From the NCBI RefSeq assembly GCF_025699255.1, contig NZ_JAILWA010000011.1, positions 1 through 47,172 on the forward strand: a stretch of 47,172 bases of DNA, read 5' to 3'. The DNA comes from Nitrosopumilus sp. GTDB lineage: Archaea; Thermoproteota; Nitrososphaeria; Nitrososphaerales; Nitrosopumilaceae. The notes below the pieces were generated by a model. It was not told the DNA's origin. It searched no databases and saw only the letters and a list, made by a program, of their open reading frames with translations. Within the stretch, counting starts at the first letter, position 1, and each line of letters starts with the position of its first letter. This document shows positions 19,009-38,456 of this stretch, piece by piece. Both the position numbers and the translations under genes were made by a program.

Positions 19009-22000
19009 GTGCAATCGATGAATCGTAATATTCCAATTATATTTTCTGTACTTCTTTTTGCTGGAATATTGGCTCCTGCATATGCACAGACCTCTGATCA
19101 TGTTGTAATTAATGAAGTTGACATAAATCCTCCTGGTGATGATTCTAAAACTATTTCTGAATGGATTGAACTTTACAATCCTACTGATTCTGATGTTGAT
19201 ATAGGTGGATGGAAAATTGCGTCTACTACTGTTCTTAAAAAAACAATGATAATATCATCTGGTACCATAATCAAACCTGGACAATATCTGACATACTCAT
19301 ATCAAAGTTTGTGGTTTACTGATTCAAATGAATCTGTTGAATTAAGAGATGGAAATAATATTGTTGTTGATAAGACTCCAAATTTCAGCGATATTCAAAA
19401 TGATTTTACTTCTTGGCAGAGACTATATGATGGATATGATTCTGACAGTTTTGGTGATTGGAAATTTGTTACTTCTACTGCTGGCTCATCCAATGGAAAA
19501 TTAATTCAAACAAAAGATTCAGACACTGTTACAGTTTCTATTTCTTCAGACAAATCATCTTATTTGTTTGGTGAAGTGGCAGTTATTTCTGGAAGTGTGT
19601 CTGAAGAAGTTTTTCAATTCAAACCTTTTTTCCAACCTGAAAAGATTGCAATTACTATCTCTGGTCCAAATTTTAACAAAGTAGTTACAATGTATCCAGA
19701 TCTAAAATTAAATTATAAAACTACCCTTAGTCTACATCAAGTTTTAGGAATTAACGAAGGAAATTATGAAGCAGTTGTTAGTTATGGCGGTTCAACCTCT
19801 AGTACAACTTTTTCTGTTGGAAATAAAATATTGGAACAAGAAAATAAAGAAGAATCTGATATTAGTATTCTTACAAACAAGTCACAATACCTTCCGGGAG
19901 AAAATGTTTCAATATCTGGATTTGCATCTGAAATAATTCCATTTGAAGGTATGTCATTTACAGTTACTGATGCTAATGGAAAAATTGTTGCAAACGGTAA
20001 TCTTTTCCCCACCAATGGCAAATTTTCAACTTCGATATATCTTACAACCGTGTCTCCTAATTATGGAGTTTATGAAATCAAAGCCACTTATTTTGACAAA
20101 TCTGCATCCTCTACTTTTGAAGTAATCCAAGATGTCAAAGAAGACGTTCCTATCTCGTTGTGGACTGACAAAACTGCATATGGTTTAGGCGAGGTTGTCA
20201 CTATTAGTGGAAGACTAAATGATGTATGGATTAGCAATTTAGATTTGGAAATTGTACAAACTAAACAATCTTCTCTCAGCACTTCAGGTAATTCTGGATT
20301 TAAAATCCTAGATAGTGTGAAAATAGAGGGTAACGGCTCGTTTACCTACTCTTTTAAAATTCCTGATAATTCTATTAGATTAGGTGATTACAAAATCACC
20401 GTATCCAAAGATATTGGCTCTGCAACAATTATCGCACATGCAGTAAAGGATCCAGAAAACTTCATCCCTTCTAATGATCCTCTGACAATTCAGACTGATG
20501 CCGGAATCTATGAATTTTCAGATAAAATTACTATTAGCGGTTTTGTAAAGGACCCTTTTAGTAATTCAAGTTATGGTACTGGCACTCCAGTAAAGGTTTC
20601 AATTTCTCATGAGGATGGTTCTCCTTTACAGATTGTTGATTTACAAGAAACAAAAAGACTGGGTGGCGGTGGTGTGATTAATTATGATTTTACTGCCATT
20701 CCTGAAACATCTGGAAGATATTCTGTCCAAGTTGATGCTACCAAAAATATCTTTGATGTTGGAAACTATGTGGTGAAGGCACAATATTTGTCACACACTA
20801 TCACTACTACTTTCTCAATTGTTGATTCTTTGGATTTAGAGGATGGTGCAATTCTTTCTATTGACAAGGATGTATATGGTTTAGGTGAAACTGTTCATCT
20901 TACTGGAATATTGCCTCCGACAGGTGACCATTCTGTATCTATTTCTGTTACAAAACCTGATGGTACTAGATCACAATCTGGAGCAACTGTAGAGAATCAA
21001 CGTTTTTCATGGGAATGGAAAGTTCCTTCTTTTGAGAAACCCCCAATATTGAAAAACGCGGATGGTAGAGATACTCGAATATCTAATTATGGTATTTACA
21101 AAATCAAAGTGTCTATACCTTCTGAAACCATGAATATTTTCTTCAAAGTTTCCAAAGATCCTGACAATGACACATTGTCTATGACTCCTCTTTTCGTATC
21201 CACTGAAAAATCTCTCTATAAAGCTGGTGAGAAATTAAAAGTAATTGGTAATGTAATTCAAAGAAATCAAGGTGAAGAAGGCTTAGTAGTAAAAGATAGA
21301 GTACAATTAAGAATTCTGGATGGTACTTTCCCCTACAAATTAATTCATGAAGCAAATGTGTATCCAAACCAAGGTGGTGAATTTTCAAGCTTGTTTGAAT
21401 TGCCTGCTACCGTTTTTGATGAAGGTGAATACACTGTTCGTGCAAATTATGGATCAACTCAAACTGAATCCATATTCAGCGTTGCAAATGATTTTGTATT
21501 TGGTGTTCAGGATGATTTAGCCTTGTTACTAAATATTGATAAATCTGAATACTATCCTGGTGATACTGTAATTATCTCTGGAAAACCAAACAAGTTAATT
21601 TATTTGGAAAAATTTGATGTAGGCGTAATCAAAAAAGGTGAATCTGAAATAAACTGTGGCTCATTCATCTGTGGTAAAAATATTGGACCTGTAAAGACAA
21701 TTCGCCCTGGTCCTTCTGGTGCATTTACTCATGAATATGTTATTCCAAACAAATCTACATCAATTGGTACATACGAAGTAACAGTTGATGCTGATTTTGA
21801 TACTGGTTCTGTAAAGTTTGTTGTCTTAGAAAAACCATCTGCTCCAAAATTAGATACGATAATTCAAAAAGAAAACAGGATTGCTGAAAAAACTATCCCT
21901 ATCTTCACTCAAGAAAAAACTGTAGATGATGTAACTATTGCTCCTAGAGTATTATCTGGCTCATTGATTACTCCTACTAGGGGAGATGAATCTAATGTTG

Positions 22001-22287
22001 ATCTTAAAGTAACTACTGTTACAGGAACTTGCATAATTGGACCAGATGCAGAATGCCTCGTAAGAGAATCTACAAGAAAACCTGGCCAGATTTATGATGT
22101 TGTTGAAGTTGATGGAATAAATCTTAATGTTAGGTATAGTGGACCTGATGTTCGTTTAGAAAAATTCAGTATTTTGCCTGAAACTTCAGGAGCCTTCTTG
22201 CCTGATGCTAATTGGAATGTTGAGGTACTCAAAGATGAACAGGTTTCACGATTTTACTACAAAGTTACATACAAAACATTAGAGTAA
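19009..22287 (+). CDS. large secreted surface protein: lamin-tail domain plus seven beta-sandwich repeats
   Basis: A 1092-residue exported protein. After the signal peptide (cleavage probably after APAYAQ, about residue 27) comes a lamin tail domain at about 30-165 (VVINEVDINPPGD, then EWIELYNPTDSDVDIGGWKI). Seven related modules follow, each about 100-130 residues and each opening with a motif like DKSxYxxGExVxISGxV, near 175, 290, 385, 500, 620, 735 and 840. This resembles the macroglobulin/Ig-like modules of archaeal cell-surface proteins. There is no C-terminal transmembrane helix, so it is held by other surface components or released. TATA-like TCTAAAATG about 27 nt upstream favours GTG at 19009; ATG at 19018 is an alternative. 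S-layer association is inference. Confidence 0.88.
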   Translation: MQSMNRNIPIIFSVLLFAGILAPAYAQTSDHVVINEVDINPPGDDSKTISEWIELYNPTDSDVDIGGWKIASTTVLKKTMIISSGTIIKPGQYLTYSYQSLWFTDSNESVELRDGNNIVVDKTPNFSDIQNDFTSWQRLYDGYDSDSFGDWKFVTSTAGSSNGKLIQTKDSDTVTVSISSDKSSYLFGEVAVISGSVSEEVFQFKPFFQPEKIAITISGPNFNKVVTMYPDLKLNYKTTLSLHQVLGINEGNYEAVVSYGGSTSSTTFSVGNKILEQENKEESDISILTNKSQYLPGENVSISGFASEIIPFEGMSFTVTDANGKIVANGNLFPTNGKFSTSIYLTTVSPNYGVYEIKATYFDKSASSTFEVIQDVKEDVPISLWTDKTAYGLGEVVTISGRLNDVWISNLDLEIVQTKQSSLSTSGNSGFKILDSVKIEGNGSFTYSFKIPDNSIRLGDYKITVSKDIGSATIIAHAVKDPENFIPSNDPLTIQTDAGIYEFSDKITISGFVKDPFSNSSYGTGTPVKVSISHEDGSPLQIVDLQETKRLGGGGVINYDFTAIPETSGRYSVQVDATKNIFDVGNYVVKAQYLSHTITTTFSIVDSLDLEDGAILSIDKDVYGLGETVHLTGILPPTGDHSVSISVTKPDGTRSQSGATVENQRFSWEWKVPSFEKPPILKNADGRDTRISNYGIYKIKVSIPSETMNIFFKVSKDPDNDTLSMTPLFVSTEKSLYKAGEKLKVIGNVIQRNQGEEGLVVKDRVQLRILDGTFPYKLIHEANVYPNQGGEFSSLFELPATVFDEGEYTVRANYGSTQTESIFSVANDFVFGVQDDLALLLNIDKSEYYPGDTVIISGKPNKLIYLEKFDVGVIKKGESEINCGSFICGKNIGPVKTIRPGPSGAFTHEYVIPNKSTSIGTYEVTVDADFDTGSVKFVVLEKPSAPKLDTIIQKENRIAEKTIPIFTQEKTVDDVTIAPRVLSGSLITPTRGDESNVDLKVTTVTGTCIIGPDAECLVRESTRKPGQIYDVVEVDGINLNVRYSGPDVRLEKFSILPETSGAFLPDANWNVEVLKDEQVSRFYYKVTYKTLE

Positions 22288-22321: not shown

Positions 22322-22813
22322 ATGAAATTACAAGTCTTAATGTTTTACCAAGATGATCCAAAAAAATGCACTGCTGCTAAAATAGTAAAATTCGGTCTTG
22401 CCAAAAATATTAAAAAAATTGGTTCTAAAGGATTGGTTTTGGATCCTTTTTCTGAAAAAACATTATTGCCCAAAGACAAATCTATTGTGAATTCTATAAT
22501 TGGTATAGATTGTTCTTGGAATCTTGCAGATCAGGCATTTTCTAAAAAATTTGCAGGAATCAAAAGAAAACTTCCTCCATTACTTGCAGGAAATCCTGTA
22601 AATTATTCTAAATTAAATAAATTAACTACTGTTGAGGCATTAGCAGCATCATTATTCATTTTGGGTTCAAAAGAACAATCATTAGAATTGCTAAACAAAT
22701 TCAAATGGGGCCATACTTTTTATGAACTAAACCAAAATCTTTTAGAGGAATATTCTAAATCTGAGAATGAATCTGATATTGTAACTGTTTTAAAAGACTA
22801 TGGGCTAGTCTGA
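22322..22813 (+). CDS. tsr3: 16S rRNA aminocarboxypropyltransferase Tsr3
   Basis: A 163-residue protein of the Tsr3/DUF367 family, which transfers the aminocarboxypropyl group from SAM to a hypermodified base of small-subunit rRNA. Family blocks seen are KKCTAAKIVKFGLA near residues 14-28, GLVLDPFSEKTLLPKD, GIDCSWNLADQAF near 62-74, RKLPPLLAGNPVNYSKLNKLTTVEALAASLFILG near 82-117, and FKWGHTFYELNQNLLEEYS near 126-145. The length matches archaeal homologues. Its 3' end overlaps the convergent substrate-binding protein gene by 16 bp. Confidence 0.95.
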   Translation: MKLQVLMFYQDDPKKCTAAKIVKFGLAKNIKKIGSKGLVLDPFSEKTLLPKDKSIVNSIIGIDCSWNLADQAFSKKFAGIKRKLPPLLAGNPVNYSKLNKLTTVEALAASLFILGSKEQSLELLNKFKWGHTFYELNQNLLEEYSKSENESDIVTVLKDYGLV

Positions 22814-25263
22814 TATTTTTTCTTGAGATACAACACAATCCCTATGATTATTGGAATTAAAATTATCCATGTCAAATATTGCACTTCATTTGTAGAATAT
22901 TCTATATTTTCATTATCTGTAATTGGTAATTCTGGATTGTTTTCTGTGACAAAAAATGTTTTTTCATAAAAATCTGGTTTTAAGATTGATTTTGAAATTG
23001 CAAATATTTTGATGTTATTTGCACCTATGCCTAATTTTTTTGAATTTTCAGGCGATATGTTGATGATTGCTTTGTCATCTAGAATTTTTTGTTCTTCTGA
23101 TGCAATTTTCTCTCCGTGATTGTTTGTGATGAAATACAGCAATTCATCAGAATTTTTAGTTTCAATTGATATGGTTATTTCTTTCCCACGTTGGATTGCA
23201 TTATCCATGAATATTTTTTCAATTGATGGGAATGGCGTATTTTCAAATTTACTCCATTCGCCTTTTTTGAATGGATATGTGCTGTCTTCAAAAGATGTAA
23301 CTTTGATTGTTCTTGATTCTGGAGAATATGACTCTAAATAAAATGGCCCGTTGCTAATAACTGCGTGTTTTTTTGTTTGAATCCATTTAATTGATGCGTC
23401 GTATCTTTTGTCATAATAGTCCTGGCTTGAGTTGCCTTCTTTTAATGCTCTAGGTATGTAGTTTTTTTGTTTAAATTCTTCCAAATAATTTTTGAGCATG
23501 TTTGCATCTTTTGGAATAATTAATGACAACCAGTTTACATTTTTGTTTGTAGCTCCAGATCTTGAAAATGATGCTTTTCCATCTATTACTGAATTTTCCA
23601 TAGCTGCCGTAATTTCCCAAGGTACTGTACTCCATAATACTGCCCATTCAGCAATTTCTCCTTCATCAAAATGCCAATAATCCACATATACTTCGATTGT
23701 ATCTTCATCAATCGGATTTATTCCTCTAATGGTCTGAATACTCTGGGCTGCTCGTGGAGTAAATTCTGTATCAAAAGTCTGGTCTGTTTGATCAGTCTGT
23801 GTTCCCCATTCTATTGTAAAATATAATGAATGCAAAATATCATTCATATCCATTTTGACTCCGTTATGCCAATTGCTGAATTTAAAATCAAATGTAACTT
23901 TACTGATTGCTTGAGAATTCTCACTTACATTGTCCCATTTTTGTAAATTTGGATTCCAGATTACAGCTTCTTTTGGTATGTTGATTTTATCTGTTGGTCC
24001 TTTTGTTTCTACATTCCATGTGGTTCTGACAGGAAATGTTTCTCCTGTGAATGGATGCTTAAACGTAGCAGGATCTGAAATTATTCCCCATATTTGCCTG
24101 CTATAACTATCTGTTAATCCCATAATTGGATTCCATGCACCTTGATAGATTTGTTTCACTCCGATAACTAATTCATCGTGTTCACTTTTTGCATTTATTG
24201 GTGTAAATCTACTTGGAATCCCAGCTCCGAAATCATTAACCACTCCGTTGATTTTTTCATTTACTATGTACTGATCAATCTTACTTGCCAAAAATATTCT
24301 AACTGATTCTGTAATTCCTTCTGCGATTGCATCTTGGATTAGTTTTGTTCTTTGTTCTGCTGTTTCAAAATCTCCTGTATAGATTCTTTGAGTTAATTTA
24401 TCTAATTTTTCATTTTTGTAATTCCAGTAACTTGGATCATTGAATCCTGGCATATTTGAAAACCATGGAGAATACATTTGACCTAATCCTACTGAATCAT
24501 ACTTGACAAACGCTGAACGATTCCATCCTTCTGTGTATAAACTCCATTTAAGATCTGAAGGATTGGAGCCATATACTACGACAAATGCTTTGTTCAAATC
24601 TCCAAAATCTTTCTTAATTGTAAATCCTATCTTTTCTAATTCTGCTGATAACACTTCTCCAATTGATTTTCTTACTGGATCGTCACTTCTAATAAAAATT
24701 GTAATTTCAATTGGAGCGTCATCTATTTCCCATTTTCCATTATTCTTGCTTGCTCCCTTTTTGTAAAGTATTTCTGAAATGATTTCTTCTGCAAGACTAG
24801 GGTTGTATTTGAAATCATATGCTTCTAGTTGTTCCACTACCGTAAGAAATTCTGGATCTGATGGACTATAGTAAGAGACAATCGGTGAACCGTACCCTCC
24901 CATCAATTCATTCACAATTAATTTTCTGTCAACCAGATAATTCAGAGCAAATCTTATTTCTTTCTCAGAAAAAGGATTAAATTTTTCTGATTCTGCCGGA
25001 TTTACCAAAATACTATATGATCCTCCTGTGGAATCAAACACTTGCAATTCTCCTCTTTCTTTGCTATTTTCTAATCTGTCTGGAGAAATTGTATAATAGT
25101 AAATATCCAAATTTCCATTTTTAACTTCTTCAAGTGCTGTATTTTCATCTAGGTATTGTATGAATTTCACTGAATCAAAAAATGTATTTTTATCTGCAAA
25201 TGATTCATTGTGAATTACTGTTATAATTGAAACCGCTAGTATTATCACTAGCATTTTTTTCAT
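22798..25263 (-). CDS. extracytoplasmic substrate-binding protein, SBP family 5-like, apparently circularly permuted and membrane-anchored
   Basis: An 821-residue protein with an N-terminal signal sequence (3-23) and a C-terminal transmembrane helix (about 792-812) followed by a basic tail, so it is anchored facing outward. The sequence contains the family 5 (oligopeptide/nickel) hallmarks but in a swapped order. The usually central and late blocks come first: LDENTALEEVKNGNLDIYYY at 38-57, IRFALNYLVDRKLIVNELMG at 103-122, and SAELEKIGFTIK at 206-217. The usually N-terminal blocks come later: VTFDFKFSNWHNGVKMDMND at 456-475 and NGPFYLESYSPESRTIKV at 638-655. A beta-rich linker (690-780) precedes the anchor. 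No permease or ATPase genes adjoin it, so transport or sensing is uncertain. Confidence 0.85.
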   Translation of the reverse strand: MKKMLVIILAVSIITVIHNESFADKNTFFDSVKFIQYLDENTALEEVKNGNLDIYYYTISPDRLENSKERGELQVFDSTGGSYSILVNPAESEKFNPFSEKEIRFALNYLVDRKLIVNELMGGYGSPIVSYYSPSDPEFLTVVEQLEAYDFKYNPSLAEEIISEILYKKGASKNNGKWEIDDAPIEITIFIRSDDPVRKSIGEVLSAELEKIGFTIKKDFGDLNKAFVVVYGSNPSDLKWSLYTEGWNRSAFVKYDSVGLGQMYSPWFSNMPGFNDPSYWNYKNEKLDKLTQRIYTGDFETAEQRTKLIQDAIAEGITESVRIFLASKIDQYIVNEKINGVVNDFGAGIPSRFTPINAKSEHDELVIGVKQIYQGAWNPIMGLTDSYSRQIWGIISDPATFKHPFTGETFPVRTTWNVETKGPTDKINIPKEAVIWNPNLQKWDNVSENSQAISKVTFDFKFSNWHNGVKMDMNDILHSLYFTIEWGTQTDQTDQTFDTEFTPRAAQSIQTIRGINPIDEDTIEVYVDYWHFDEGEIAEWAVLWSTVPWEITAAMENSVIDGKASFSRSGATNKNVNWLSLIIPKDANMLKNYLEEFKQKNYIPRALKEGNSSQDYYDKRYDASIKWIQTKKHAVISNGPFYLESYSPESRTIKVTSFEDSTYPFKKGEWSKFENTPFPSIEKIFMDNAIQRGKEITISIETKNSDELLYFITNNHGEKIASEEQKILDDKAIINISPENSKKLGIGANNIKIFAISKSILKPDFYEKTFFVTENNPELPITDNENIEYSTNEVQYLTWIILIPIIIGIVLYLKKKYQTSP

Positions 25264-32362: not shown

Positions 32363-33730
32363 GTGTCTCGGGCTGTAATTATGTCTGTTTTGTTAGCAAC
32401 TCTTATCGTTGTAGGTACTAGTACTCCTGCTTGGGCTGCTCAATTAGATGCAAGAATTAATCCTAATAGCGATACATCTCCGTTTAAGATGAATTACCAA
32501 AAAACCATTTTCATTGAATATCCAAACGGTGGTGCATTGTTTGACGAACTCCATGAAAAGACTTGGACATTTGCTGGCACTGCAGATTCTTCAAATCCTG
32601 GTGTTCAAAATTTAATGAAAAAATTAAATGAAAATATTGCAGATAATGGAAGTCAAGCTAGAATTTCAGATCTTAATGTTTTATACGATATTCATCTTAA
32701 AGGTAGAAATATCAATTCTTCAATAGATTACAAAATTATCCTAACTGGTACATTAAGTGAATATGTAATTACTAAAGATCAAGTTAGAACTTTAGTTGAC
32801 TTGGGTTGGAGAGGCCTTTCTACAAATGCTGAAATTGTAGTTGACGGTGTTGATATTAACCATCCAATTAACTTACTTGAAGAGGAAGAACCTTTCCTTT
32901 ATGAAATTATTGCAGGTACTGAAGCTGAAGAGATTCTAAGTAAAAACATGATTAATGCTGATTTTATTTTACAACAACCTTTGACTAACTGGCACTTTTT
33001 GTTTGATCCAACCGGTATCAATGTGGATGCTGGAACTTTTGGACTAGATGAAGAAATTGCAGGATTTGTGGTTTCTTCATGGACTATGGGTGAAAGTAGT
33101 ATCAGAGAAGGCCGTCAAGTTGAGCGAGTGTTTGAAGCAGAAATTAATTCAGATCAACTATATGTTATTCGTAGTGTGCAATCCTCTGATCAAGCTAACT
33201 TGTCAACCATAGGTTTTGGTGCTTTAGATATTTTAGATGGTGTTGAAATTGCTGGTGTGACCCCAACTCCTCCTGAAGATTATATGACAACTTCTACTGG
33301 TGATTTCCCAGTAATGATAGTTTACGGCATGGCTGGATTAGCAGCTGTTGCAGGTATTGCATTTTTCTTTGTAAGTAATAGATCTCTCAAAAATGAGAAA
33401 CAAGGCCAACAAGGTATTGACCCAAGTCGATTGGTTGGTTACCAAACAAGTGCTTCTTCTGGTGGTTATCAAACCAACAGAGGTGAAGCTCAACTCAAAG
33501 ATGATTCTGATTATCAGCAAACTCGAAGTGTTTATGAGAACACTGCTCCTCAGGAGACAACTACCCCACCACCAACTGCAGCTAATCGTGAAGAAGCAGC
33601 ATGTGGTTGTGCAGCTTCTGCTGAAATGGGCTCTGAATGTGATTGTGCTATGCAAGGCTCTTGCCTTTGTGATGCCTCATGTGGTTGTTCTGCAGATATC
33701 TGTAAAGAACAAGTTAATTCCATGAGTTAA
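32363..33730 (+). CDS. type I membrane protein with metallothionein-like cytoplasmic tail
   Basis: A 455-residue protein I cannot assign to a family. It has a signal peptide (about 1-25, ending PAWA-A), a ~285-residue outer domain with mixed alpha/beta character, one transmembrane helix at about 315-339 (VMIVYGMAGLAAVAGIAFFF), then a ~115-residue tail. The tail first is Gln/Ser/Thr-rich and contains repeated GYQT motifs, and ends with nine cysteines in about 35 residues, eight in four CxC pairs (CGC, CDC, CLC, CGC). Such CxC density is typical of metallothionein-like metal binding. A TATA-like TTTATTA 28 nt upstream supports GTG at 32363 and a leaderless mRNA. A hairpin follows the stop. Confidence 0.8.
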   Translation: MSRAVIMSVLLATLIVVGTSTPAWAAQLDARINPNSDTSPFKMNYQKTIFIEYPNGGALFDELHEKTWTFAGTADSSNPGVQNLMKKLNENIADNGSQARISDLNVLYDIHLKGRNINSSIDYKIILTGTLSEYVITKDQVRTLVDLGWRGLSTNAEIVVDGVDINHPINLLEEEEPFLYEIIAGTEAEEILSKNMINADFILQQPLTNWHFLFDPTGINVDAGTFGLDEEIAGFVVSSWTMGESSIREGRQVERVFEAEINSDQLYVIRSVQSSDQANLSTIGFGALDILDGVEIAGVTPTPPEDYMTTSTGDFPVMIVYGMAGLAAVAGIAFFFVSNRSLKNEKQGQQGIDPSRLVGYQTSASSGGYQTNRGEAQLKDDSDYQQTRSVYENTAPQETTTPPPTAANREEAACGCAASAEMGSECDCAMQGSCLCDASCGCSADICKEQVNSMS

Positions 33731-35498: not shown

Positions 35499-38456
35499 GT
35501 GAGTCGAATTCCTGTAGTGCTAAGCCTGTTTGTAATTCTTTTAATGCCTGTATATGCCTCTGCACAAACTCCTGACAGAATAACTATTTTGGAGGACTTT
35601 GGTAATTATGACCGTGGAGAACCATTATTTGTCTATGGACAAATTGCAAACATTGTAGATGATTCTTTCCTAATCATGCAAATTATTAATCCTCAAGGAG
35701 ACTTGTGCCAAATTCAGCAACTAATTCCTTTACCTAACGGTGCATTCATCACTGATGTAATCCCTCTAGAAGGAAGAATTTGTGGGCTAGATGGCGAATA
35801 TGAAATCAGATTATTTTATGGAGATTATTCTACATTTACAACCTTTGACGTATCTTCTGATTCCTTTTCCAAACTGACTGAAGACGATCTGCTTTTGTCA
35901 GCTAAAAATCTGTTGTCTTTACAAGGTTCTGTGATTAGTGATTTGTTTGATGTCCCTTCCCCTGTTTCTAATCAAACCTCAAATAATTTATCTGAATTGG
36001 AATCTGAATATGTTTCACTTTTGAATGAATTTTTTGTAGATGATTTAATTGTTGAAATCAATCCATTAATTAGACCTGCAATTTCTTCATCATTAGATTC
36101 TGTACAACAATTATTAGATGATGATGAAATTTCATTTGAAATTGCGCAATCTATTGATGAAACAATCTTTGCATCTGTTTTTTATTATGAAATTGGAGAT
36201 AAATCAAAAGCAATTGATTTACTGACTGATGTATTTGTAGATATACGAAATGTAAATCCAGAAAAACTTTCTAATCAACGAACTCCTACTTTTGATGAAC
36301 TAGAAGAAACTCTGTTAAATTTAATGAAAAAATCTGATACGGTTATGAGTAAATCTGTAAAAAGTGAGGTTGCATTCATTTTTGCAAGAGGTACTGCTCC
36401 TGTATTCTCTGATGAAATTGGCGAATTAATTGATCTCCTCTCAAAATCTCGTTACTTGGATGTTATATCCAGAAAACAAAGTGACCTTTACAGGTTAGTT
36501 CAAAATGACTGGGAATCTCTAAAACCTTCATTGATGGGCAAAGAATCCATTGATGAACTTATTGCATCTTTAACACAGGTTACAGAACTACATCAAGCTG
36601 CAATTCTATTACGCGAACTTGATTCTGTTGACCGTTTCATTTCCTCTGATTCTGAAGAAAACAGTGATCTGGCAAATTTGATTCAGCCTGATTGGAATGC
36701 TTTGGAAAGAGATTTGGCATTGGCCTCTTCAGTTGAAGATATTTTGGAATCTGAATCAAAAATCACTCAAATGGCACAAGTCATTGATATTTCATCTAGA
36801 ATTAGTAAAACTGTTGAAATTTCTCAAGTGAGTGGGGTTGATTCTAATCTTGTAAATGACTGGAAATTGCTTTTAGAACAAGTTGAAACTGCTGACTCTG
36901 TTGAGGAGATTTTGCTCATTGTTTCAGAATTTGATAACTCTATGACGGAATTACGTGAAAAACGAAATCCTTTGAATGTTTTAGAATTCCAATACAAAAC
37001 AATGAAAGAAAAAGCTGAATTACAAGCTGATTACCAAAATCTATTTTTGATTGACAATGCTTTGAAAATCATAGATACTGCCAAGCAAATGGAATCTGGA
37101 AATCCTTCTATAACTAGAATTGATAGAATTGAAGTTTTGTTAAGTTGGGCAAGTGAAACGTCTTCTAAAATACAAGATGATTTGGATTCATACAACAAGG
37201 ATGCATACAAAGTTCGCGCTAGCGATATTTTACAACGTGCAAAATCTCTCGAAAATCTAGTTGAATTAAGTTTGACTAAAAACCGATTCTTGCCAAATTA
37301 TATTGAATTTACTGAAACCTTTAATGAAAAAATTGATAATGTGCGAGATCTGGTGATCAAAAATGATCTTGATCAAGCTGATGAATTAGTTCGTGAATTA
37401 TTTGAAGAATGGAGTTTGGTTTCCAAAGCATACACTGATGATCCTTACGGTTCTGATGTTGGATATACTGGTGATGAAATCAAAAGAATTGAATTCCGTA
37501 AAAAACTTGATATGTTCTCAACCATGGTTTCAACATTTTACAATGCAGGATTCTCAGATTATGTTGATGAATATAATCAAAAAATGGCAGATGCTGATAA
37601 AATGATTAGACTGGCAAACTTCGTTGATGTTGAATCCAAGATTTCAGAAATTGGCAACTATCTAAGCGAGCATTTAGTACTGGATAATGAAAGTATCATT
37701 TATGAAATTTCTTTTGACGTTGAAAAAGATATTTGGATAATTAATGGAGCTACTGAAAAATCTGTTTTCGATAGGCGTGAAAATCTCTATGTGACTGTTT
37801 ACAACATGGATGGCACCAAGCACAGTAGTCTTGAATTTACTGATACTAAACAAGGTAATTTTTTCACTCAGTGGATTGCCCCTGCTGATCCTGGTCTTTA
37901 CATTGTAATGCTTCAATACAAAGACTCCAAGGCTTCACAGATTGTGCATATTGAAGAAGAATTTGATTATGAATACACTACATCTGATTTGAATATGGTT
38001 GAACTGGCTCGCGAATTTGAAGAATTGGAGTCATTTGCAGAAGCATTTGGAGGTGAAGGTTTCTCTGAAAATCCTCGATTTGCATCAGTCATCAATGAAA
38101 TTGAATTTGCATTCAAAGATAAAGATGCTAAAGATGTAGATGAAAATCTCAAAGAATTAAAAACACTCATTGAAAGATACCTTCCAATTCGATCTCGTGT
38201 GGCTGTAGTTGAAGCCATCTATGATGATGATAAATTGATTGTATCAGGTGCTGTTCAAAAAACTATTGCCTTTAGAGAAGACTTGTTTGTAGATGTATAT
38301 GATCAAAGAGGCACTTTGATTGAGGAAATTGCATTAAAGGATAATTCGTCTGGTTTATTTTCTGAAACTGTCTCTCGTTCCTTTGAACCAGGTGTTTATG
38401 TGACACAACTACAGTATCATGATGTTGTAGTTACTGATTTCTTTAATGTCCGATAG
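35499..38456 (+). CDS. secreted 985-residue protein: beta modules flanking a long helical region
   Basis: After a signal peptide (about 1-23, ending VYASAQ) a beta domain occupies about 25-120 (RITILEDFGNYDRGEPLFVYGQI onwards). A long, acidic, alpha-helical region (about 130-730) with spectrin-like repeats of DxVxxILxxxS character follows. Two more beta domains close the protein, about 740-830 (DIWIINGATEKSVFDRRENLYV) and about 895-985 (DDKLIVSGAVQKTIAFREDLFV). The three beta modules share a [V/L]xGxxxK...R[E/D]xLxVxVY pattern and resemble the modules of the 1092-residue surface protein at 19009. No transmembrane helix follows. GTG at 35499 has a TATA-like TTTTAAGTA 29 nt upstream. A surface or S-layer-associated fibre-like role is inferred. 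The gene ends directly at the first base of the convergent reductase gene. Confidence 0.85.
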   Translation: MSRIPVVLSLFVILLMPVYASAQTPDRITILEDFGNYDRGEPLFVYGQIANIVDDSFLIMQIINPQGDLCQIQQLIPLPNGAFITDVIPLEGRICGLDGEYEIRLFYGDYSTFTTFDVSSDSFSKLTEDDLLLSAKNLLSLQGSVISDLFDVPSPVSNQTSNNLSELESEYVSLLNEFFVDDLIVEINPLIRPAISSSLDSVQQLLDDDEISFEIAQSIDETIFASVFYYEIGDKSKAIDLLTDVFVDIRNVNPEKLSNQRTPTFDELEETLLNLMKKSDTVMSKSVKSEVAFIFARGTAPVFSDEIGELIDLLSKSRYLDVISRKQSDLYRLVQNDWESLKPSLMGKESIDELIASLTQVTELHQAAILLRELDSVDRFISSDSEENSDLANLIQPDWNALERDLALASSVEDILESESKITQMAQVIDISSRISKTVEISQVSGVDSNLVNDWKLLLEQVETADSVEEILLIVSEFDNSMTELREKRNPLNVLEFQYKTMKEKAELQADYQNLFLIDNALKIIDTAKQMESGNPSITRIDRIEVLLSWASETSSKIQDDLDSYNKDAYKVRASDILQRAKSLENLVELSLTKNRFLPNYIEFTETFNEKIDNVRDLVIKNDLDQADELVRELFEEWSLVSKAYTDDPYGSDVGYTGDEIKRIEFRKKLDMFSTMVSTFYNAGFSDYVDEYNQKMADADKMIRLANFVDVESKISEIGNYLSEHLVLDNESIIYEISFDVEKDIWIINGATEKSVFDRRENLYVTVYNMDGTKHSSLEFTDTKQGNFFTQWIAPADPGLYIVMLQYKDSKASQIVHIEEEFDYEYTTSDLNMVELAREFEELESFAEAFGGEGFSENPRFASVINEIEFAFKDKDAKDVDENLKELKTLIERYLPIRSRVAVVEAIYDDDKLIVSGAVQKTIAFREDLFVDVYDQRGTLIEEIALKDNSSGLFSETVSRSFEPGVYVTQLQYHDVVVTDFFNVR

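What the first reader, a model, noticed from the sequence alone, without database searches (positions are those of the whole stretch)
22798..25263. Family 5 solute-binding protein with apparently circularly permuted block order
In usual family 5 binding proteins the block with KxTF.F...W.nG....DI..S comes near the N-terminus, then GPfYl..Y, then D.n..l..l..GeiDi, then fR.AL.Y.iDR..I. Here the order is rotated. The late blocks come first (residues about 38-57 and 103-122), with the normal C-terminal region through about 348. Then come the early blocks (about 362-483), and GPFYLESY at 639-646. The strand near the start (SVKFIQYL) and the one near 680 (PSIEKIFM) look like the two sides of the cut. 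A C-terminal transmembrane anchor was added after the new end, and no permease or ATPase lies nearby. This would be a receptor built by permutation, facing outward and anchored at its C-terminus. The family block order is known; the permutation is my reading from motifs.
Basis: partly seen in the sequence, partly recalled or inferred. Interest (0 to 1): 0.78.

Follow-up and report, generated by a model that had tools for sequence, protein, structure and literature searches.

The report
Circularly permuted archaeal peptide-binding protein
A Nitrosopumilus-type archaeon carries a nutrient-binding surface protein whose two halves are joined in the reverse of the usual order; the same rearrangement runs through the archaeal phylum Thermoproteota, usually beside peptide-uptake pump genes, so it is a rebuilt transporter part and not a stand-alone receptor.

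Summary
The permutation is real. The gene (window 25263-22798, minus strand, 821 aa) is a family 5 solute-binding protein in which the late half (residues about 26-350) precedes the early half (about 362-686). A profile of 40 relatives covers the solved Thermococcus kodakarensis OppA (7fi3) as two swapped blocks, chain 313-722 then 15-309, E 1.1e-112. Rotating the protein at residues 356-371 lifts its score against OppA from 306 to 540; shuffles reach at most 59. The order is kept in 110 of 115 Nitrosopumilaceae genomes and across Thermoproteota, so it is no assembly artefact.

The genome has one DppB-DppC pair and two oligopeptide-type ATPases on other contigs. In deeper relatives the permuted gene lies in SBP-DppB-C-D-F operons. 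SBP and DppB co-occur (Fisher p 1e-10, not corrected for phylogeny). Best reading: the C-terminally anchored binding protein of a dispersed peptide importer.

Unexpected: family 5 proteins of Thermoproteota are permuted at three cut sites, with an Ig-like stalk and membrane anchor at a new terminus. I found no description in the papers searched. The structure model was too poor to use.

The parts
22798..25263 (-). Circularly permuted family 5 solute-binding protein, 821 aa (P0001)
   Evidence: Open frame; PF00496 over cut-off, E 2.5e-27; swapped-block match to 7fi3
25192..25263 (-). Probable signal peptide, residues 1-24
   Evidence: Hydrophobic N-terminus, Kyte-Doolittle 19-residue window 1.93; signal peptidase site is inference
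24214..25188 (-). 'Late' half of the family 5 fold (residues 26-350), moved to the N-terminus
   Evidence: Pfam profile 135-349 at residues 17-250; 7fi3 chain 313-722
24181..24213 (-). Junction that joins the old C-terminus to the old N-terminus (residues 351-361)
   Evidence: Best rotation point at residues 356-371; between the two 7fi3 blocks
23206..24180 (-). 'Early' half of the family 5 fold (residues 362-686), now second; holds WHNG...DI and GPFYLESY
   Evidence: 7fi3 chain 18-309 by phmmer and 15-309 by profile
22936..23202 (-). Ig-like beta-sandwich stalk (residues 688-776), absent from the 7fi3 match
   Evidence: All-beta segment with mean pLDDT mostly 70-89 per ten-residue block in an otherwise poor model; weak Ig/FN3 Foldseek hits; no sequence hit in PDB
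22819..22884 (-). C-terminal transmembrane anchor (residues 794-815) followed by KKKY, N-out/C-in
   Evidence: Hydropathy 2.19; a like helix ends all 18 aligned orthologues

Best explanation
The gene encodes the substrate-binding protein of the genome's single Dpp/Opp-type ABC importer. The protein is exported by its signal peptide, folds as an ordinary family 5 two-lobed binding protein although the chain starts at what is normally the middle, and is tethered to the cytoplasmic membrane by an Ig-like stalk and a C-terminal helix. It captures a small solute, most likely peptides, outside the cell and passes it to the DppB/DppC channel driven by DppD/DppF. In this lineage the transporter genes are scattered over the chromosome, while in deeper relatives they form one operon. 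Shown by sequence: the permutation, its conservation, the operons in relatives and the presence of all subunits here. Inferred: export, fold, anchoring, pairing of the subunits and the peptide substrate.
For: Swapped-block match to 7fi3 and rotation test. Conserved order in the class (167 of 200 genomes have a match) and in many families of the phylum. SBP-DppB-DppC-DppD-DppF operons with the permuted gene in genomes such as L135, L142, L143, L146, L148, L153 and L134, and SBP-DppB-DppC in L155 with DppB 72% and DppC 62% identical to the dispersed pair here. The own genome has one SBP5, one DppBC pair and two oligo_HPY ATPases. Co-occurrence of SBP and DppB in the order: 143 both, 11 neither, 6 and 3 discordant. 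Di- and oligopeptide uptake by ammonia-oxidising archaea is predicted in the literature (PMC6790972; PMC7848895).
Against: In this genome none of the subunits is adjacent to the SBP, so the pairing is inferred. Three Nitrosopumilus-group genomes keep DppB and both ATPases but show no SBP (G044, G142, G171). Substrate is unknown; related archaeal binding proteins of this class are said to serve sugars too (recalled, not tested). The structure prediction failed (pLDDT 49). Co-occurrence is not corrected for phylogeny.
Confidence: 0.83

Rival explanations
1. It is a stand-alone surface receptor or scavenger: the permuted protein lost its transporter and now senses or stores ligand at the membrane.
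For: No transporter gene among the neighbouring ORFs scanned. Some relatives carry extra copies fused to type I periplasmic-binding domains or FG-GAP repeats (L089, L090), which could be receptors.
Against: A complete single set of Dpp-type subunits exists in the genome. The permuted form sits in transporter operons in relatives, and SBP and DppB are present or absent together. No signalling domain: the chain ends in a short basic tail.
Confidence: 0.1
2. It is a fusion of two partial domains from different families, or two truncated copies of one family in tandem, not a permutation.
For: Each half alone gives an independent hit to family 5 proteins.
Against: The halves are complementary: together they cover chain 15-309 and 313-722 of one protein, with no overlap and no missing lobe. 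A doubled sequence aligns continuously (540 against 306). In other subfamilies Pfam itself shows exact complementary pieces in swapped order, e.g. 146-362 then 4-146.
Confidence: 0.03
3. It is an assembly or annotation artefact.
For: None found.
Against: The same order is found in 17 full-length orthologues fetched from independent genome records and in many one-contig genomes.
Confidence: 0.01

Closest known systems
Thermococcus kodakarensis OppA (PDB 7fi3), archaeal family 5 oligopeptide-binding protein
   Same: Same long archaeal Opp subfamily; both halves match over almost the whole chain, E 1.1e-112; groups with the permuted proteins in the tree. Its bound pentapeptide (title) makes a peptide ligand likely here.
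   Different: Ordinary order (early half first); the permuted proteins add an Ig-like stalk and a C-terminal helix not present in the aligned chain.
Bacterial DppA/OppA/NikA, cluster C binding proteins of DppABCDF-type importers
   Same: Family 5 fold signature in the late half; partners DppB, DppC and two oligo_HPY ATPases.
   Different: Rotated block order, and tethering by a C-terminal helix; bacterial proteins are soluble or N-terminal lipoproteins (established knowledge).
Type I to type II periplasmic-binding-protein 'domain dislocation' (Fukami-Kobayashi 1999, seen only as a reference in PMC10601554)
   Same: A change of connectivity inside the binding-protein superfamily (from memory of that paper).
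   Different: That is one ancient change between fold types; here whole circular permutations lie within one family, at three sites, within one phylum.

Membership tests
Family 5 solute-binding proteins (PF00496, SBP_bac_5) | Profile match above the curated cut-off | tested here: met
   96.4 bits against cut-off 32.4
Family 5 solute-binding proteins (PF00496, SBP_bac_5) | Both the early and late halves of the fold present | tested here: met
   Both halves of 7fi3 covered; the early half is not seen by Pfam itself in this divergent subfamily
Family 5 solute-binding proteins (PF00496, SBP_bac_5) | Usual N-to-C order of the blocks | tested here: not met
   Order is late then early; hence described as a circularly permuted variant
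Family 5 solute-binding proteins (PF00496, SBP_bac_5) | Closed two-lobed fold with a ligand between the lobes | tested here: inconclusive
   AlphaFold2 model with mean pLDDT 49; Foldseek top hit 7fi3 but TM-score 0.11
Dpp/Opp-type ABC importer | Two BPD_transp_1 permeases of DppB/DppC type in the genome | tested here: met
   L028 8074-10502, G000 contig C8
Dpp/Opp-type ABC importer | Two ATPases with the oligo_HPY C-terminal domain | tested here: met
   C12 and C1, one each
Dpp/Opp-type ABC importer | SBP gene in the operon of its permease | tested here: not met
   Dispersed in this genome and 76 kb to over 1 Mb apart in one-contig relatives of nearby genera; met in deeper relatives
Dpp/Opp-type ABC importer | Peptide binding and uptake | not testable with these tools
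Stand-alone membrane receptor | No cognate transporter in the genome | tested here: not met
   Single complete set of candidate subunits present

The most novel reading that the evidence does not exclude
Circular permutation is a recurrent evolutionary route in Thermoproteota: family 5 binding proteins were cut open at at least three different loops, and in each permuted type inspected an Ig-like stalk plus membrane helix sits at a new terminus. Permutation would then be the way these archaea reposition the membrane tether of a binding protein without touching the binding site.
Probability: 0.45. Interest if true: 0.75.

Novelty: new variant of a known kind. Interest (0 to 1): 0.62.

Why it matters
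Natural circular permutation within a large, intensely studied transporter family offers a clean test of how fold, block order and membrane anchoring are linked. It also means that standard annotation sees only half of these proteins: Pfam matches just the late half of this one. Most Nitrosopumilaceae genomes have this form as the apparent binding protein of their only Dpp-type importer, which bears on how marine ammonia oxidisers take up organic nitrogen.

Tried and rejected
Structure: AlphaFold2 on P0001 with 17 orthologues gave pLDDT 49, unusable for an order-independent superposition; Foldseek on it gave 7fi3 first but with TM 0.11. Viral contigs and phages: no relatives. Plasmids: only half-length matches to ordinary bacterial proteins. 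Literature searches for circular permutation in solute-binding proteins found no description of natural permutants of this family, but the library lacks most subscription journals. An annotated N. maritimus record was not in the collections. Fusion, artefact and missing-transporter readings were rejected as stated. The AU test of a single origin of the P0001-type permutation did not finish on 81 rows; on 36 rows it was not rejected, p 0.55.

Full report
What was claimed.

The observation. The ORF lies on the minus strand, 25263 to 22798, 821 aa, without interruption. Pfam SBP_bac_5 matches residues 17-250 to profile positions 135-349 only, i.e. the late part of the profile sits at the N-terminus. 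Against the PDB the best chain is 7fi3_A, OppA of Thermococcus kodakarensis, hit twice and off the diagonal: query 372-664 to chain 18-309 and query 28-275 to chain 321-593. With a profile of 40 permuted relatives the two blocks become 383-683 to chain 15-309 (181 bits) and 32-372 to chain 313-722 (202 bits), overall E 1.1e-112, so almost the whole 732-residue chain is covered, in swapped order. No other PDB chain listed shows such a swap; the other matches are late-half matches to ordinary binding proteins.

A direct test of rotation. Cutting residues 26-690 at every 15th residue and rejoining them gives the best local score against OppA when the cut is at 356-371: 540, against 306 for the native order. 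Against an independent collinear relative (L159, a genome of the same phylum) the figures are 493 and 317. Shuffled targets reach at most 59.

It is not an artefact. Seventeen full-length orthologues from other genome records, mostly labelled Nitrosopumilus, keep the order at 54-76% identity. In the class, 167 of 200 genomes have a match; in the window's own family (Nitrosopumilaceae by the record titles) I count 110 of 115. In a sample of the phylum 163 of 250 genomes match, many over the full length in this order at 25-35% identity. With profiles of the two halves, 137 ORFs read from the loci then held (many from overlapping or duplicate loci) have late-then-early order; three readings of one gene (G245) have the usual order.

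Architecture. Residues 1-24 look like a signal peptide. After the early half comes a segment of about 90 residues predicted as a beta sandwich (the best-modelled part of an otherwise poor AlphaFold model; weak Ig/FN3 hits), then a hydrophobic helix at 794-815 followed by KKKY. A like helix ends all 18 aligned orthologues. This fits an outward-facing protein with the C-terminus inside. A published survey of Thermoproteus tenax binding proteins describes this topology, a signal peptide and a C-terminal helix, for two of 15 (PMC3189178); the passages read do not mention permutation.

The transporter. None of the ten neighbouring ORFs scanned is a permease or ATPase: they match DUF2070, a CAAX protease, TFB, CofD, a ribosome-biogenesis protein, a metallopeptidase and an LTD/MG2 protein, and three have no family. 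But the genome contains exactly one family 5 protein, one DppB-DppC pair alone on another contig, and two oligo_HPY ATPases on two further contigs. In deeper relatives the permuted SBP stands next to DppB, DppC, DppD and DppF (for example L126, L128, L130-L136, L138, L139, L142-L149, L153, L157), and in one genome of the same family SBP, DppB and DppC are adjacent, DppB 72% and DppC 62% identical to the dispersed pair (L155). In one-contig relatives of nearby genera SBP and DppB are 76 kb to over 1 Mb apart; in other genera they are 1-3 kb apart. In the order, SBP and DppB are both present in 143 genomes, both absent in 11 and discordant in 9 (counted from the tables; Fisher p 1e-10; not corrected for phylogeny). 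So the gene is best read as the binding protein of a Dpp-type importer whose operon has been scattered.

Substrate. Peptides are most likely: the closest structure was solved with a bound pentapeptide (title), the ATPases are of the oligopeptide type, and peptide uptake by ammonia-oxidising archaea is predicted in the literature (PMC6790972; PMC7848895). This remains inference.

A wider finding. Using Pfam positions within single ORFs of 42 genomes of the phylum, 141 family 5 places fall into 87 in one collinear stretch, 18 with the pieces demonstrably swapped, 31 with the late part only, and 5 others. Many of the late-part-only places are at the coordinates of P0001-type genes. Three cut sites appear. 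Cut 1 (profile 142/145) is that of P0001 and of several distant subfamilies. Cut 2 (about 286) is seen in L088, L167, L199, L200 and L201. Cut 3 (between 186 and 209) is seen in L198. Collinear and permuted copies coexist in the same genomes. In cuts 1 and 2 the extra domain and helix follow the new C-terminus; in cut 3 a helix and a CARDB domain precede the new N-terminus. A tree of sequences put back in canonical order separates the P0001 type (with collinear OppA inside or beside it) from the other cut 1 proteins, and grouping all cut 1 proteins is rejected (AU p 7.7e-65). So cut 1 arose more than once, or was reversed in the OppA line. A single origin for the P0001 type is not rejected (p 0.55). 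Long branches make the exact count uncertain.

Limits. No usable three-dimensional model; no experiment; genomes in the wide search are unnamed; other archaeal phyla and bacterial chromosomes could not be searched; literature limited to open papers.

Noticed in passing
L088, L199, L167, L200, L201: Family 5 proteins permuted at a second site (profile about 286): the C-terminal part comes first, and the repositioned end carries Ig-like or similar domains and a helix.
   Followed up: partly
L198:3873-5915: A third cut site (profile 209-364 first, then 2-186), here with an N-terminal helix and CARDB domain as the stalk.
   Followed up: partly
L089 (2102 aa ORF), L090 (1094 aa ORF): Permuted family 5 domain fused to type I periplasmic-binding domains, in L089 also to FG-GAP repeats; possible multi-ligand surface receptors.
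   Followed up: partly
Genomes G044, G142, G171: Same genus as the window; DppB and two oligo_HPY ATPases present but no family 5 binding protein found.
   Followed up: no
G245, L159:964-3654: Rare collinear member of the same Opp subfamily inside Thermoproteota, grouping with Thermococcus OppA; possible gene transfer.
   Followed up: partly
window 19009-22287 (+): 1092 aa ORF with LTD and MG2 domains, near the permuted gene's 3' end; probable surface protein.
   Followed up: no
window 35499-38456 (+) and 32363-33730 (+): Large ORFs (985 and 455 aa) without any Pfam match at E 0.001.
   Followed up: no
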